Shown: piece after piece, positions 12,164 through 18,311 of the stretch
Layout: every line of letters starts with the position of its first letter
How positions within the stretch are numbered: the first letter of the stretch is position 1
Source of the DNA: Algibacter marinivivus
GTDB taxonomy: Bacteria > Bacteroidota > Bacteroidia > Flavobacteriales > Flavobacteriaceae
Reading direction: 5' to 3'
DNA: 64,000 nucleotides
Assembly (NCBI RefSeq): GCF_003143755.1
Contig: NZ_QFRI01000005.1
Location: 1 to 64,000, forward strand
Position numbers and translations under genes: made by a program
The notes under the pieces: model-generated
What the model saw: the letters and a program-made list of their open reading frames with translations, nothing else
Told to the model about the DNA's origin: nothing
The model's database searches: none

Positions 12164-15100
12164 ATGAAAAATACTACTATAACAAGTTTTATGGTATTGT
12201 GTTCTATACTTTTTACATTAAAAAGTGCTGCACAATTACATAGTCCTCCTAGTTGTGGAGAGAACTTTACTTTAGATTGGTCTACTAGTCCTAGTATGTC
12301 AAATGAGTTTGATTGGTTAGCTGCAGGAGCTTTAACTAATACTTTTACTGATGTAGATGGATCTGGAATAGATTTTACAGTAACTTTTACTGGTGAAACA
12401 GCTTCTTTAGGTAATTGGGGCGGACAAACACCAAAAGTAGGTACATCCGCAAGCGGATCAACAACTGAATATCTAGATCTTTATACAAGTGGGTTTTCAT
12501 CCACGGGAATCACATGTACAATTACATTTAGCTCGCCTATTTACGCACTTTCATTTGATTTATTGCACGTAAATGCAGGAGGAGGACATGGAGACATGTA
12601 TACTATTAGTGCAACAACTACTTCAGGTGGTACTATTTATCCAACATTTACAAATTCTGCTACCCCATCTTACACTTCAAATAATGCAACAGGTGTTGTG
12701 GATGCTAATGGTGCATCAGTAGCTGGTACAGATGCTATGGTTGGTATTAATTTTTTAGACCCAGACTATATAACAAGTGTTACCTTTTTATGGCAAAATT
12801 GTTCAACCTGTACAGACTACTTTGTTCATGGTTCTGGATTAGGTAACTTTAGTTTTTGTATTCCTCAAACTTTAGATTTTGATGGCGTTAACGATTATGT
12901 GGATAGACCTGCTTTTTTAGGAGGAAAATCAGAAATAACTATGATGTCTTGGATAAAACTAGACAGCGGAACTGATGGCGGAGAGATAATGGGACAGCGA
13001 AATTTCAGACTTTTTGTTGATTCTAATAAATACCTAAGAGCTTTCGTAAGAACAGATAATGATTTAAGCATATACACTTCAGCACTTCCTGCAACATTAT
13101 TAAGTGAAAATATATGGTACCATGCAACTGCTAAATACGATGGTAATTCTGGTACTTTAAACCTTTATTTAAACGGTAAAAATGTTTATAGCTATTCTAA
13201 TGCATCAATAGTAGGTACTACGCTTAATAATTTAGCAACTTGGAACTCTGATCATGATTTTGAAATAGGTAGAAATACCCAATTAGATAATAATTATTTT
13301 GAAGGCGATATTTATGAATGTCGCGTTTACAATAAAGCACTTACTACAAATCAATTACACAGACAGGTAAATCAAGAAATTGAAAATAATTCAGGAAATG
13401 TAAGAGGAACTATTATTCCAAAAGACATTGAAGGTTTAGCATGGAGCGATTTAGAGCTTTACTATAAAATGGGAATTATAGATACTGGATATACGCCAGA
13501 CGAATCTAACAATAATATTGATGGACATCTTAATAACATGAGAACCTATCAAGAATATACAGCACCTCTTCCGTACGTTACAACAGAATCATGTAGCGGA
13601 GATTGGGACAATTCAAGCAATTGGGTTCATGGAGATGTATGGGATATTCACAGTACCCCACCAGAATGTGCCATTATCCAAATTAAAGGAAATATGGAAA
13701 TTGATTCTGATAGAAAAACAGTTGGATTAATTATAGATAGCGGAAGTAAATTAGAAGTGAATGGAGATTCTGGACTATTTAATTCTTGGTATATAAAACT
13801 TGATGGTGAAATTGATTTAGAAGGAGAATCACAACTTATACAAGAAGAAGAAAGTACTTTAGACGCAACTAGTGCTGGAGTTCTTGAAAGAGACCAACAA
13901 GGTACTGCTGATACTTACACATATAACTACTGGTCATCACCTGTTGGAGCATCAAATAACTCTACAAATAACAATAGTTACAAAATACCTAATATAATAA
14001 CTAACGTTGGTTTTTTAAGCTCAGGTTATGATGGAACTCATACACCTGTAGCAGTATCTGATTATTGGATATGGAAATATAGTAATAGAATAAGTGATAG
14101 TTATGCTTCATGGCAACATGTTAGAAGTAACGGAACCATGCTCGTAGGAGAAGGTTTTACTATGAAAGGTCCTGGAAACGGGAACATTTCAGACACTCAA
14201 AACTATATTTTTAATGGAAAACCTAACAACGGAGATATTAATTTAACTATTAGTTCTGGTAATGATTATTTAGTAGGAAACCCTTATCCTTCAGCTATTG
14301 ATGCCGTTCAATTTATTTTAGACAATGGTGCAACAATTGATGGTCCAGGTTCTACAAATGGAACATTATACTTCTGGGAACACTGGGGTGGAGGTTCTCA
14401 TGTTTTAACTGAATATCAAGGTGGTTATGCTACTTATTCTTTGGCTGGCGGAGTGCCTGTAGCATCAAAAGGATCTACAGATCCAGATGTAGCAACTGGT
14501 GGTACGCCAACAAAAACACCAGGGCGTTATATACCAGTATCTCAAGGTTTTTTCGTTACAGCTGAAACTGGTGGTACAATAAAATTTAATAATGCACAGC
14601 GTGTATTTCAAAAAGAAGATGGTAGTAATTCTGTGTTCACTAGGTCTTCAAACACTAAAAAAACTAAAGCTAGTAAAACTACTACAAGTAATGATACTAG
14701 AATGAAATTAAGAATAGGATTTAACTCCGTAAATACACTTCACAGACAAATTTTAATTACGGTAGATGAAAACGCTACTATGAATTATGATTGGGGGTAC
14801 GATGCCAAATATATTGATACCCAAGTAGATGATATGTATTGGATGATTAATAATGAAAAATTCACTATTCAAGGTACAAATGAAATTAATGATCAAACCA
14901 TTATTCCATTAGGAATACATACCAAAACGGATGGATTAAATAGTATTGTAATTGATAAATTAGAAAACACGCCTAATGATTTAGAGATCTATTTACATGA
15001 TAAAGATTTAAATATCTATCATGATTTAAGAGGAGGCAAATACGAAACCTATCTTACGTCTGGACAATATTTAAATCGTTTTGAGTTAACTTTTTCAAAA

Positions 15101-15376
15101 AACCAAACATCATTAAGCACTGAAGAAAATGAAGATAAACAAATAGAAGTTTATTTTTCAAATGAAAAAAATAGTATAGTAATAAACAATCCTGCTTCAA
15201 AATTAATAGAATCAGTAGAAATGTTTAATATACTAGGTCAAACCTTATTCAAGTTTCAAACTAACACGAATAATAATCATATAGAATACAAGGCTAACCA
15301 AATTAAAACTGGTAATTATATTCTTAAAATAGAAACTGAATTTGGAATGATTTCAAAAAAGGTATTAATAAAATAA
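12164..15376 (+). CDS. Secreted LamG-domain protein, T9SS type A cargo (1070 aa), paralogue of the preceding gene
   Basis: It has the same layout as the gene at 8804: signal peptide (residues 1-23, ending SAAQ), unrecognised N-terminal domain with FTGETASLGNWGGQTPKVGT, LamG from QTLDFDGVNDYV (about 235), the shared [15 protein letters not shown] module at about 586-816, and a T9SS type A tail from about 990. The last 85 residues are almost identical to the neighbour's in protein but differ at many synonymous positions. That argues for old duplication plus purifying selection rather than recent copying. The Ala/Thr/Lys-rich linker before the tail (SNTKKTKASKTTTSN) is a typical pre-CTD spacer. 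Function at the surface is inferred only. Confidence 0.9.
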   Translation: MKNTTITSFMVLCSILFTLKSAAQLHSPPSCGENFTLDWSTSPSMSNEFDWLAAGALTNTFTDVDGSGIDFTVTFTGETASLGNWGGQTPKVGTSASGSTTEYLDLYTSGFSSTGITCTITFSSPIYALSFDLLHVNAGGGHGDMYTISATTTSGGTIYPTFTNSATPSYTSNNATGVVDANGASVAGTDAMVGINFLDPDYITSVTFLWQNCSTCTDYFVHGSGLGNFSFCIPQTLDFDGVNDYVDRPAFLGGKSEITMMSWIKLDSGTDGGEIMGQRNFRLFVDSNKYLRAFVRTDNDLSIYTSALPATLLSENIWYHATAKYDGNSGTLNLYLNGKNVYSYSNASIVGTTLNNLATWNSDHDFEIGRNTQLDNNYFEGDIYECRVYNKALTTNQLHRQVNQEIENNSGNVRGTIIPKDIEGLAWSDLELYYKMGIIDTGYTPDESNNNIDGHLNNMRTYQEYTAPLPYVTTESCSGDWDNSSNWVHGDVWDIHSTPPECAIIQIKGNMEIDSDRKTVGLIIDSGSKLEVNGDSGLFNSWYIKLDGEIDLEGESQLIQEEESTLDATSAGVLERDQQGTADTYTYNYWSSPVGASNNSTNNNSYKIPNIITNVGFLSSGYDGTHTPVAVSDYWIWKYSNRISDSYASWQHVRSNGTMLVGEGFTMKGPGNGNISDTQNYIFNGKPNNGDINLTISSGNDYLVGNPYPSAIDAVQFILDNGATIDGPGSTNGTLYFWEHWGGGSHVLTEYQGGYATYSLAGGVPVASKGSTDPDVATGGTPTKTPGRYIPVSQGFFVTAETGGTIKFNNAQRVFQKEDGSNSVFTRSSNTKKTKASKTTTSNDTRMKLRIGFNSVNTLHRQILITVDENATMNYDWGYDAKYIDTQVDDMYWMINNEKFTIQGTNEINDQTIIPLGIHTKTDGLNSIVIDKLENTPNDLEIYLHDKDLNIYHDLRGGKYETYLTSGQYLNRFELTFSKNQTSLSTEENEDKQIEVYFSNEKNSIVINNPASKLIESVEMFNILGQTLFKFQTNTNNNHIEYKANQIKTGNYILKIETEFGMISKKVLIK

Positions 15377-15452: not shown

Positions 15453-15478
15453 AAGTCCTGAACTGACCTTCAGGACTT
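15453..15478. terminator. Bidirectional hairpin overlapping the hisS stop codon
   Basis: AAGTCCTGAA (15453-15462) pairs perfectly with TTCAGGACTT (15469-15478) across six bases. The hisS stop codon (minus strand TGA, 15470-15472) lies in the stem. The + strand has a modest T-rich tail, so it may mainly end the + strand transcript of the preceding secreted protein. Confidence 0.6.
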
Positions 15479-17122
15479 CTTTATTTTAGACATTAGTGTT
15501 TCTAGCGAAACTTTATCTTGTTCACCAGAAATCATATTTTTCAGAGTATACGTATTCGATTCTATTTCTTGGTCTCCAACTAAAACTACAAATGGAATTT
15601 GACGCTTGTTAGCATGATTCATTTGTTTTTTCATTTTTGCAGTATCAGGATACAATTCGGCATTAATACCTTGTAAACGCAATTGCTTAATGGCTTTTAA
15701 ACTAAATAAAGCTTCATTATCTCCAAAGTTTATAAAAAGAACTTCAACATTTTTGGTAACTGTTTCTGGAAATAAACCTAATTCTTCAAGCACTAAGTAA
15801 ATACGATCCAAACCAAAGCTAATCCCAACGCCACTTACATTTTTCATTCCGAAAATACCAGTTAAGTCATCATAACGACCACCGCCACCAATAGAACCCA
15901 TTTTTACAGTTTCTGGAGCAGATACTTCAAAAATAGCACCTGTGTAATAATTTAGTCCGCGCGCCAACGTAACGTCCAACTGCAATGTAGATGTTGATAA
16001 GCCTAATGCAGAAATAGCATTGTTTATAAAACTTAACTCTTCTATACCTTTTAGACCTTCTTGCGAAGAGGATAAAATTCCTTTTAAACTTTCAATTTGA
16101 GATTCAAAAGCCCCGGACAATGTAAATAAAGGCTGTAGTTTAGAAATTCCATCTTCAGAAATTCCTTTAGAAAGCATTTCTTCTTTTACCTTCTCCTCTC
16201 CTATTTTATCAAGTTTATCTAAGGCAACCGTAAAATCAATTAATTTATCAGAAGCACCAATAACTTCAGCAATACCAGAAAGTATTTTTCTATTATTTAT
16301 TTTAATAGTAACACCGTCTAGTTTTAAAGCTGAAAAAACAGTATCATATAATTGAATAAACTCCACCTCTTGCCAAAGCGATTTGCTTCCAACTACATCC
16401 GCATCACATTGAAAAAACTCTCTAAAACGGCCCTTTTGTGGTCTATCAGCTCTCCAAACTGGTTGTATTTGGTAGCGTTTAAACGGAAATTCAATTTCGT
16501 TTTGGTGTTGTACTACGTAACGAGCAAAAGGCACGGTTAAATCGTAACGAAGGGCTTTTTCTGAAATTGACGGCGTTATGCTATTCGATTTAATATTTAA
16601 GAAAGTATTAGCATATATATCTGCGAATACTTTTTGACGTTCATCATCACTTGGTGAAGACTCTAGATTTCTATAATTACCATGGATTGTAGAAATAATG
16701 TAATCCAATACATCATCAGGAGGTAGATTTTTTATACTATTCTTTCCTCCATGTTTACTAACCTTTAAAAAATTTTGAACAATCTGATTTCTAGATTCTC
16801 TACGAAGCCAATCAATACTATTAATTTCGTCTTTAGAAAGTTCCAGATAAAACATCTCTCCTATTCTAATTGCAGATAAAATTCCATTTTTAATCTTGTC
16901 GAAATAATCTCCAGAATTCAAAATCTTAAAAATCAGTCTATCCCCTTCATCACCATATTTCCCCATCAACGTATCCGAGTTTTCAAAACTAGGTGTTTCA
17001 ATAGGTTGAAATCCAAAAGTTTCAAAAGCACCACGAATGGTATTAAAAATATAGTTTCGTTTTGCGACTTGTTCAGGATTAAAATCTCTGGTTCCTTTTG
17101 GTATTGATGGTTTTTGAGCCAT
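15470..17122 (-). CDS. hisS: Histidyl-tRNA synthetase with an unusual internal insertion
   Basis: A class II aminoacyl-tRNA synthetase that charges tRNA-His with histidine in the cytosol. Core signatures are present: the N-terminal PKGTRDF, the [14 protein letters not shown] segment (about 190-203), motif 2 [15 protein letters not shown], the HisA-type [25 protein letters not shown] and motif 3 [17 protein letters not shown], and the C-terminal anticodon domain (residues about 455-545). The protein has 550 residues, whereas flavobacterial HisRS as I know it is about 455-465. The excess lies between residues about 77 and 183, where only a linker of some 20 residues is expected after [11 protein letters not shown]. 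The inserted part is in frame, hydrophilic to amphipathic, and has no intein splice residues. The start at [14 protein letters not shown] is the usual one for the family. Confidence 0.93.
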
Positions 17123-17320: not shown

Positions 17321-17791
17321 TTAATTTATCAACTTATAAAAATACTGATACAATTCACCTTTAGTAATAACGGCGCCTTGTTCTATCATTTTAAATTTAT
17401 CAAGGTTTTTATCTTCACTATAGTCTTTATCAGCTTGCAAAAACTCAACATTGTCATCCATCAAATTTTCGCGCAACCAATTATAGCCTTCCTGTGTTGT
17501 TATATCAATGTCTTCATTCTTAACATTAACCACTATAGCATGCATATTTGCTTCATCTAAATGAAACAAATACATATGCTGTGGCGCAAAATGCTCTATA
17601 TATTCAGCTTTGTTAAGTGCTCCTTCCCAAATTAAGTCACTAAATACATCCAACTCGGTTTCAGCCAATTCAGGCTTATTAACTTTAAGGTTTGTCCACT
17701 CATCATGAGTAATAGATTGAGTTGCTAAAAAATTAATGAACTCTTGGTGTAGCTCTTCAAACTGTTCTTTTGTAAGTCTAGAATACTTCAT
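17321..17791 (-). CDS. DUF6495 family protein
   Basis: A soluble protein of 156 residues, rich in Glu, Asp and aromatic residues. No signal peptide or membrane segment is visible. The N-terminus MKYSRLTKEQFEELHQEFINFLA and the motif ELDVFSDLIWEG match, from memory, a conserved Bacteroidota family of unknown function (DUF6495). It lies directly downstream of rplI on the same strand, 74 bases away, but the rplI terminator separates them. No catalytic residues can be named and no function is proposed. Confidence 0.75.
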   Translation of the reverse strand: MKYSRLTKEQFEELHQEFINFLATQSITHDEWTNLKVNKPELAETELDVFSDLIWEGALNKAEYIEHFAPQHMYLFHLDEANMHAIVVNVKNEDIDITTQEGYNWLRENLMDDNVEFLQADKDYSEDKNLDKFKMIEQGAVITKGELYQYFYKLIN

Positions 17792-17864: not shown

Positions 17865-18311
17865 TTATTTTGCTTGAGCAATAACTTCAAAATCTAAATC
17901 AACTGATACTTCTCTGTGTAAACGTACTACAGCAGTATATTTACCTAAACGCTTTACAGTTGTAACTGTAATGAATTTTTTATCAATTGCTTGTCCTTCT
18001 TTTTCTAAAGCAGCTGCAACATCAATATTGTTTACTGATCCAAATAATTTGTCTCCCGTACCAACTTTTGCAGGTATTTTAATTTCTAATGCTTTAATTG
18101 CTTCAGCAACTTTGTTAGCATCATCAACTACTTTCTTTTCTTTAAAAGCACGTTGCTTTAAGTTTTCTGCTAATACTTTTTTAGCAGAAGGAGTAGCTAA
18201 CATTGCTTGTCCTTGAGGAATTAAAAAGTTTCTACCATAACCGTTCTTAACTGTTACAACATCGTCTTTAAATCCTAAATTTTCAACGTCTTGTTTTAAT
18301 ATAAGTTCCAT
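17865..18311 (-). CDS. rplI: 50S ribosomal protein L9
   Basis: A large-subunit protein of 148 residues, the normal length, that binds domain V of 23S rRNA through its N-terminal domain. The L9 signature is visible at the N-terminus: MELILKQDVENLG, then VKNGYGRNFLIPQG and A. A long connecting helix with KEKKVVDDANKVAEAIKAL and a C-terminal domain (LFGSVNNIDVAAAL onwards) follow. It is the last gene of the rpsF-rpsR-rplI operon, 13 bases after rpsR, and is followed by a clear terminator. Confidence 0.98.
   Translation of the reverse strand: MELILKQDVENLGFKDDVVTVKNGYGRNFLIPQGQAMLATPSAKKVLAENLKQRAFKEKKVVDDANKVAEAIKALEIKIPAKVGTGDKLFGSVNNIDVAAALEKEGQAIDKKFITVTTVKRLGKYTAVVRLHREVSVDLDFEVIAQAK

What the first reader, a model, noticed from the sequence alone, without database searches (positions are those of the whole stretch)
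16574..16894. About 80-100 residue in-frame insertion in histidyl-tRNA synthetase beside the active site
Between [11 protein letters not shown] and [16 protein letters not shown] the family normally has a linker of about 20 residues. Here about 107 residues (77-183) intervene, while everything else in the enzyme looks normal. The insert is in frame, soluble, with helical patches ([36 protein letters not shown]) and without a family I recognise. Its place is next to the LRYD loop that holds ATP and histidine. It could be a regulatory or tRNA-contacting domain, or a relic of a selfish insertion that lost its ends.
Basis: partly seen in the sequence, partly recalled or inferred. Interest (0 to 1): 0.8.

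Follow-up and report, generated by a model that had tools for sequence, protein, structure and literature searches.

The report
Swappable domain inside a tRNA synthetase
Some flavobacteria carry an extra helical domain of about 90 residues inside an essential protein-making enzyme (histidyl-tRNA synthetase), and close relatives carry unrelated versions or none, which suggests that this part of the enzyme is being swapped around, perhaps to escape something that attacks it.

Summary
The insertion is real: hisS (15470-17122, minus strand, 550 aa) has 115 residues where close relatives have 23. It is neither a one-strain accident nor ordinary family variation. Long forms are patchy in Flavobacteriales (3 of 10 genomes of the genus; at least 21 of 387 matched genomes of the family; 58 named stretches), always at the same site. 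The inserts are hypervariable: 65 distinct ones form 20 sequence clusters, and HisRS proteins 91% identical elsewhere have inserts at 18% identity (noise level). Insert type is almost independent of descent: the nearest core relative shares the insert cluster in 11 of 60 cases (shuffled mean 9.9), whereas the core follows the neighbouring gene closely (rho 0.87). Inserts are low in GC and under purifying selection within clusters; one cluster is confidently predicted all-helical. I found no relative outside hisS. tRNA-His does not co-vary. I read it as an exchangeable allelic domain under diversifying selection, most likely driven by an antagonist (phage or toxin) that acts on HisRS. The hypervariability and decoupling are shown; recombination as the route and the antagonist are inferred.

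The parts
15470..17122 (-). hisS, histidyl-tRNA synthetase, 550 aa, long form
   Evidence: ORF; TIGR00442, 396.8 bits against a cut-off of 286.75; PDB HisRS
16559..16903 (-). hypervariable loop, residues 74-188 (115 aa against 23 in the usual short form); cluster ins2
16904..17122 (-). conserved N-terminal flank (residues 1-73), ends [10 protein letters not shown]
15470..16558 (-). conserved C-terminal flank from residue 189 (KALRYDLT...) to the stop codon
16535..16552 (-). LRYDLT, residues 191-196, counterpart (alignment recalled) of the LRPEGT loop; Glu90 and Thr92 of B. thailandensis HisRS are named as bonding the amino acid
16841..16909 (-). predicted helix, residues 72-94
16820..16834 (-). 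predicted short helix, residues 97-101
16751..16801 (-). predicted helix, residues 108-124
16673..16717 (-). predicted helix, residues 136-150
16595..16648 (-). predicted helix, residues 159-176
17321..17791 (-). neighbour gene (156 aa, unnamed), used as control of vertical descent
17865..18311 (-). rplI-like gene (name from recall), second control of vertical descent

Best explanation
The insert is a compact helical domain set into the loop just before the histidine-binding LRYDLT loop of HisRS. It is one allele out of a large pool of unrelated or hugely diverged domains that Flavobacteriales exchange at this one site, probably by homologous recombination through the very conserved flanks, while the rest of the enzyme is inherited vertically. 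Selection keeps each domain folded but favours carrying one that differs from the neighbours'. The likeliest cause is an antagonist that must dock on this face of HisRS to inhibit or modify it (a phage protein, an injected toxin or a mobile-element toxin): a bulky, ever-changing domain blocks or misleads the docking. Shown: site, patchiness, hypervariability, decoupling from descent, low GC, purifying selection within clusters, no tRNA-His co-variation. Inferred: homologous recombination as the route, nearness to the substrate entrance in three dimensions, diversifying selection, and the antagonist.
For: Same site and similar length in 75 of the 76 loci with a loop over 40 aa (106-125 aa; L041 has 53), but 65 distinct inserts in 20 clusters. 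Core 91%, insert 18% identical between the window protein and L002; after the insert L041 and L095 are 98.1% identical, with loops of 53 and 112 aa, and L008 and L002 97.2%, with 23 and 122 aa. Nearest core relative has the same insert cluster in 11 of 60, shuffled mean 9.9. Control: core against neighbour gene rho 0.874 (31 loci) and 0.698 (22 loci); core against insert 0.084 and -0.009 in the same loci. Insert GC below core GC in 69 of 69, fourfold-site GC lower in 61 of 69, beyond core-window controls. Within clusters insert dN/dS 0.12-0.63. One cluster folds confidently as a helical domain (pLDDT 91.3). tRNA-His identical across long and short forms. Precedent that toxins hit synthetases: HipA-type kinases and GluRS or TrpRS (title and start of abstract of PMC6581861, listing).
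Against: No antagonist, partner gene or phage relative was found. No dN/dS above 1; dS is near saturation, so positive selection could not be tested well. Recombination breakpoints were not shown: the dip of third-position identity beside the insert does not exceed short-short controls. A slight trace of descent remains in insert type (Mantel rho 0.08, p 0.036; 0.30 within ins0; ins0 and ins1 slightly clustered on the tree). Most HisRS of the family are short, so the domain is not needed, and most strains do without the supposed protection. The model of the whole protein is poor in the catalytic core, so the three-dimensional position is untested.
Confidence: 0.45

Rival explanations
1. Tolerated domain turnover: the loop is a permissive site. 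Helical domains, once acquired, are exchanged along with hisS segments of other flavobacteria and drift, with no benefit beyond not harming the enzyme (a selfish cassette is a variant of this).
For: Hypervariability, weaker constraint than the core, low GC, frequent absence, no partner found. A permissive loop also appears as 23, 41 and 53 aa forms.
Against: Core and neighbour genes do not show such exchange, so the segment must be favoured or specially mobile. Nearly all inserts keep 106-138 aa and, in the two modelled, a helical fold. No border repeats and no second copy in the genome.
Confidence: 0.25
2. Infection sensor: the domain recognises an invader protein and shuts down or alters HisRS, stopping translation (an abortive defence embedded in the enzyme).
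For: Hypervariable, patchy, exchanged, low-GC domains are typical of defence parts (recalled); place beside the active-site loop.
Against: No consistent defence-family match: PADLOC gives only scattered single-member partial hits, best E 4e-05 in one of 19 ins1 members and not in its close kin. No phage relative. Risky in an essential enzyme.
Confidence: 0.15
3. Regulatory or tRNA-contacting domain that tunes charging in particular species.
For: Position just before the histidine-binding loop; purifying selection within clusters.
Against: tRNA-His is identical in genomes with ins2, ins0 or no insert; insert type ignores descent; sister species lack the domain.
Confidence: 0.08
4. DNA-level protection: any insert that breaks up this conserved stretch of hisS removes a target site for a nuclease (homing or CRISPR-like), so its protein sequence hardly matters.
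For: Unrelated inserts at one site.
Against: No target, nuclease or spacer was looked for; purifying selection and fold go beyond what breaking a DNA site needs; plain synonymous change would do the same.
Confidence: 0.07

Closest known systems
Lineage-specific insertional domains of essential enzymes, e.g. BEAN and HABAS in bacterial RNA polymerase (PMC11515920, abstract read)
   Same: Extra folded domain set into a loop of a universal enzyme, in some lineages only
   Different: Those follow the Tree of Life according to that abstract; here insert type is nearly independent of descent and many unrelated inserts share one site
Exchangeable variable modules such as target-recognition domains of type I restriction specificity subunits, or antigen and polymorphic-toxin cassettes (recalled)
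   Same: Conserved frame with a swapped, hypervariable domain; allele independent of the species tree
   Different: The frame here is an essential cytosolic tRNA synthetase; no antigen, DNA-recognition or toxin role is known
Toxins that act on synthetases: HipA-type kinases on GluRS and TrpRS (title and start of abstract of PMC6581861, listing)
   Same: Show that synthetases are real targets of protein toxins
   Different: I know of none for HisRS, and no link to this locus was tested
HisRS with the short 23-aa loop of the same genus; PDB 6nhi_A as solved short-form relative
   Same: Same enzyme and flanks
   Different: Lacks the domain

Membership tests
Histidyl-tRNA synthetase (class II) | Scores above the curated cut-off of the hisS equivalog model | tested here: met
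   TIGR00442 396.8 bits against 286.75
Histidyl-tRNA synthetase (class II) | Catalytic activity with the insert in place | not testable with these tools
   Only one hisS match in the genome, so this copy is presumably the active one
Lineage-specific insertional domain | Distribution follows phylogeny | tested here: not met
   Nearest core relative shares the insert cluster in 11 of 60, shuffled mean 9.9; core-insert rho 0.08 against core-neighbour rho 0.87
Exchangeable variable module (allelic cassette) | Many alleles in one conserved frame, independent of descent | tested here: met
Exchangeable variable module (allelic cassette) | Exchange by homologous recombination in the flanks | tested here: inconclusive
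   Flank identity dip not different from controls
Exchangeable variable module (allelic cassette) | Several alleles within one species | not testable with these tools
   The genome collections used hold one genome per species
Intein or homing element | Splicing or homing-endonuclease domain | tested here: not met
   No Pfam match of the window insert; scattered weak hits only in ins0 and ins1; helical models
In-frame palindromic or transposable element | Border repeats or further copies in the genome | tested here: not met
   One copy; only short repeats of 11-16 nt, none pairing the two borders
Anti-phage defence domain | Match to a known defence family | tested here: not met
   PADLOC: the window insert 0 families at E <= 1; scattered single-member partial hits elsewhere, best E 4e-05 in 1 of 19

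The most novel reading that the evidence does not exclude
An essential cytosolic tRNA synthetase is the polymorphic face of an arms race: flavobacteria swap unrelated protein domains in and out of HisRS to escape (or to sense) a still unknown phage or toxin protein that acts on this enzyme. This would be a diversity locus inside the core translation machinery.
Probability: 0.5. Interest if true: 0.92.

Novelty: new variant of a known kind. Interest (0 to 1): 0.8.

Why it matters
Aminoacyl-tRNA synthetases are generally treated as slow housekeeping genes (recalled). Here one carries a segment whose type is nearly unrelated to descent while the rest of the same protein and its neighbour genes follow descent. 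If an antagonist drives this, the variable domain is a handle to find it: a hidden class of phage or competitor proteins aimed at translation. If it is neutral, it marks a site where an essential enzyme freely accepts foreign domains, which matters for protein engineering and for annotation.

Tried and rejected
Family searches: the window insert matches nothing in Pfam at E <= 5, one NCBIfam model at E 0.052 and one PHROG at E 0.058, taken as noise. Members of ins1 and ins0 (alignments A2, A3) give only single-member Pfam hits at E 0.0044 or worse. The close kin of L035 (L020, L025, L030, L096) do not match that model, so I take it as chance, though E 4e-05 is rather low for that.

Viral contigs with A1: 519 pattern stretches, none a relative. 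Phage records by tblastn with the window insert: no match. Fold search of the ins1 model: best E 1.6 in PDB and 2.7 in viral models. Copies outside hisS: A1 in 397 genomes hit hisS of G000 and G215 only; A3 in 397 hit hisS of six only (the tool scored at most 11 candidates a genome); A2 in 30 hit hisS in eight, plus one match over 56 profile positions at E 0.004 in another ORF of G237.

One common superfamily for all inserts: not shown. Profile comparison joined ins0 with ins4 (probability 92) but not ins0 with ins1 (1.8) nor ins1 with ins2 (7.3, E 0.0048 over 86 columns). HMM hits across clusters exist.

Partner gene beside hisS: none found that is common to long forms beyond ordinary neighbours. 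An ABC-transporter-like gene (name from recall) seen in 25 long and 0 short loci is not comparable, since the short loci have only about 1.5 kb of flank.

Flank dip as a sign of breakpoints: it looked present by eye but the counted test shows no excess over short-short controls. Whole-protein model: core badly predicted (pTM 0.52), so no 3D claim rests on it. The first tree table counted the 41-aa loops as separate groups; recounted with loops up to 45 aa as short.

Full report
OBSERVATION. The hisS ORF at 15470-17122 on the minus strand encodes 550 aa and is a good HisRS apart from one stretch. Between [10 protein letters not shown] and KALRYDLT it has 115 residues (74-188, nt 16559-16903). 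The seven genus members without an insert have 23 there, and the ends of the two kinds look alike (DYL/F.K... and ...[12 protein letters not shown]), so the domain replaces the tip of a short loop. The next residues, LRYDLT, are the counterpart of LRPEGT (alignment recalled); a paper names Glu90 and Thr92 of B. thailandensis HisRS among the residues that bond the amino acid (passages of PMC5428304 seen). The insert gave one match in the genome at E <= 10, and only short repeats of 11-16 nt lie around it, none pairing the two borders.

DISTRIBUTION. In the genus, 3 of 10 genomes have a match running through the insert. In the family, 387 of 397 genomes match the protein. Among the rows the tool listed (the weaker ones are not shown), 19 genomes have one match through the whole length with an ORF of 545 aa or more. 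G232 (125-aa loop read in L210) and G041, which appears as two pieces 363 bases apart, add two, so 21 of 387 is a lower bound. In the order search (296 genomes, 278 with a match, list cut) further long forms are G608, G580 and G618 (genus g127), G593 (g131), G405 (family f3) and G439 and G594 (f5). In 395 genomes of the phylum the listed matches that run through the insert are all in this order, with the same cut list and undercount. A gapped DNA pattern for loops of about 115-135 aa counted from IFKI found 58 stretches in the species-representative collection, with record titles such as Algibacter, Yeosuana, Winogradskyella, Lacinutrix, Polaribacter, Tenacibaculum, Flavobacterium, Cellulophaga, Dokdonia, Leeuwenhoekiella, Chryseobacterium and Epilithonimonas. 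The pattern cannot see other lengths or diverged flanks: it caught 15 of 17 known long loci in a narrower form. L002, of the window's genus, has the same insert as Algibacter amylolyticus, so the window is probably from Algibacter or a close genus (inference).

HYPERVARIABILITY. Of 102 loci, 76 have a loop over 40 aa, with 65 distinct inserts. At BLAST E < 1e-3, ends trimmed, they form 20 clusters: ins0 (20 members), ins1 (17), ins2 (the window's: L001, L018, Winogradskyella L057, Hanstruepera marina L079), ins3 (4), four pairs and twelve singletons, one of which is L041 with a 53-aa loop. Cross-cluster HMM and profile hits exist, so several clusters are probably distant kin. Core identities among 16 long proteins are 72-91%, while inserts mostly align at 15-30%, which is noise level; exceptions are pairs inside clusters, up to 69%. 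The window protein and L002 are 91% identical outside and 18% inside the insert.

DECOUPLING FROM DESCENT. I used 60 of the 65 (five dropped: the 53-aa loop and four truncated proteins). Pairs share an insert cluster in 20 of 122 cases at core identity of 85% or more (16%), 62 of 268 at 80-85% (23%), 39 of 239 at 75-80% (16%), 153 of 885 at 70-75% (17%) and 18 of 256 below 70% (7%). The nearest core relative carries the same cluster in 11 of 60; shuffled mean 9.9, range 4-16. Over all pairs Mantel rho is 0.080 (p 0.036), so a trace of signal remains; within ins0 rho is 0.30 (p 0.005), within ins1 0.27 (p 0.078). The control is strong: in 31 loci the HisRS core and the upstream gene correlate at rho 0.874 (p 0.001), core and insert at 0.084 (p 0.15); for rplI in 22 loci the figures are 0.698 (p 0.001) and -0.009 (p 0.52). 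Closest cases, by identity after the insert: L041 and L095, 98.1%, loops of 53 and 112 aa; L008 and L002, 97.2%, 23 and 122 aa; L003 and L004, 93.9%, 120 and 23 aa. On a quick tree of 106 cores (40 of 102 inner branches under 80% support) short and long need at least 11 changes. ins0 needs 15 (shuffled mean 19.1, 8 of 500 as low) and ins1 12 (15.0, 10 of 500), so they are scattered with slight clustering.

COMPOSITION AND CONSTRAINT. Insert GC is below core GC in 69 of 69 proteins (means 0.252 and 0.369). Fourfold-site GC is 0.164 against 0.302, lower in 61 of 69. In 64 proteins the difference is -0.138 (lower in 56), against -0.045 to +0.026 for core windows of the same length; insert and core values correlate (rho 0.47), as expected if inserts adjust slowly to their host. 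Within clusters, for pairs with at least 38% insert identity, dN/dS (NG86) is 0.12-0.63 in the insert and 0.03-0.17 in the core where dS is finite; dS is mostly near saturation. So the domains are kept as proteins, under weaker constraint than the core. In ins0 and ins1 both ends are better conserved than the middle, though alignment to fixed flanks favours the ends.

STRUCTURE. An insert of ins1, folded with 19 sequences, is a confident helical domain (121 aa, mean pLDDT 91.3, pTM 0.86, five helices). In the model of the window protein the insert has five helices. Block means of pLDDT over residues 71-190 are 68, 88, 84, 86, 89, 62, 83, 88, 75, 87, 74 and 52, while much of the catalytic core is poorly predicted (alignment of 25 close relatives). 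The other clusters were not modelled. No solved or viral fold matches the ins1 model at E <= 0.001. Searches for relatives outside hisS gave nothing convincing.

tRNA TEST. The tRNA-His of the window's genome is identical over 75 bases in long-form G001, G015 and G215 and in short-form G002, G003, G004, G006, G008, G045, G069, G092, G228, G254, G342 and G399. All 40 genomes had some match, but G372 only weak ones, so its tRNA-His was not identified. I read 38 rows from 37 of the 40 genomes (not G146, G321, G372); the 5' GGT and the 3' ACCC are invariant in them. G(-1) and C73 are main histidine identity elements, and the motif 2 loop of HisRS covaries with C73 in alpha-proteobacteria (passages of PMC9976931 seen). 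The insert therefore does not track tRNA changes.

INTERPRETATION. A vertical core with a nearly randomised insert means that the segment alone is exchanged, or gained and lost, far faster than the gene. Conserved flanks would make homologous exchange easy, but breakpoints could not be shown. A pool of many unrelated alleles with none dominant, spread across genera, low in GC and kept folded, is what negative frequency-dependent selection gives at restriction-specificity or antigen loci (recalled comparison). The carrier is a cytosolic essential enzyme, so the agent would have to reach the cytosol: a phage protein, an injected toxin or a mobile-element toxin. Synthetases are known victims of HipA-type kinases (title and start of abstract of PMC6581861, listing). 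I give about 0.9 to the exchangeable hypervariable domain, and as driver 0.45 to an antagonist, 0.25 to tolerated turnover, 0.15 to an infection sensor, 0.08 to a tRNA or regulatory role and 0.07 to DNA-level protection.

LITERATURE. Searches of the held library (open-licence PMC only, no preprints) showed no description of this: HisRS with insertion domain and Flavobacter (none); synthetase, hypervariable and Bacteroidetes (11 listed, titles and abstract starts seen); insertion module (3 listed); phage, targets and HisRS (13 listed); conserved indel (1 listed); lineage-specific insertion (2 listed). The contrast case, insertional domains of RNA polymerase, follows the Tree of Life (abstract of PMC11515920). 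Subscription papers were not searched.

Noticed in passing
L188-L191 and L179-L182, L185: tRNA-His comes in distinct types within Flavobacteriaceae: one only 81% identical to the window's (G141, G167, G346, G381) and one at 93% that differs mainly in the 3' half (e.g. G007, G009, G217, G171). G141 (81%) and G329 (97%) are of the same genus code g133. Replacement at an integration site is one guess. The types show no obvious link with long or short HisRS.
   Followed up: partly
L150 1500-1574 (window's genome): By hand pairing, the acceptor stem of tRNA-His seems to hold two U-U mismatches (positions 5-68 and 6-67) that many relatives share. Not checked with a folding tool.
   Followed up: no
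L111-L116, L118-L121, L125, L127: Twelve Flavobacterium-like HisRS (genus code g127) have a second kind of short loop of 41 aa (NFF.NK.KIELP...), conserved among them, instead of 23 aa.
   Followed up: partly
L041 (G346), loop of 53 aa: An intermediate loop of unrelated sequence in a HisRS that is 98.1% identical after the insert to L095, whose insert has 112 aa: perhaps a trimmed or a third kind of insert.
   Followed up: no
window 12164-15376: A 1070-aa protein gene convergent with hisS, with a C-terminal sorting-like tail (recalled type). A BLAST-linked gene lies beside hisS in 41 of 96 loci examined (window counted twice).
   Followed up: no
L035 insert, residues 13-77 of the stretch given: A partial match to a type II restriction enzyme model (E 4e-05, 20.7 bits) in one of 19 ins1 members, not in its close kin. 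Probably chance, not resolved.
   Followed up: partly
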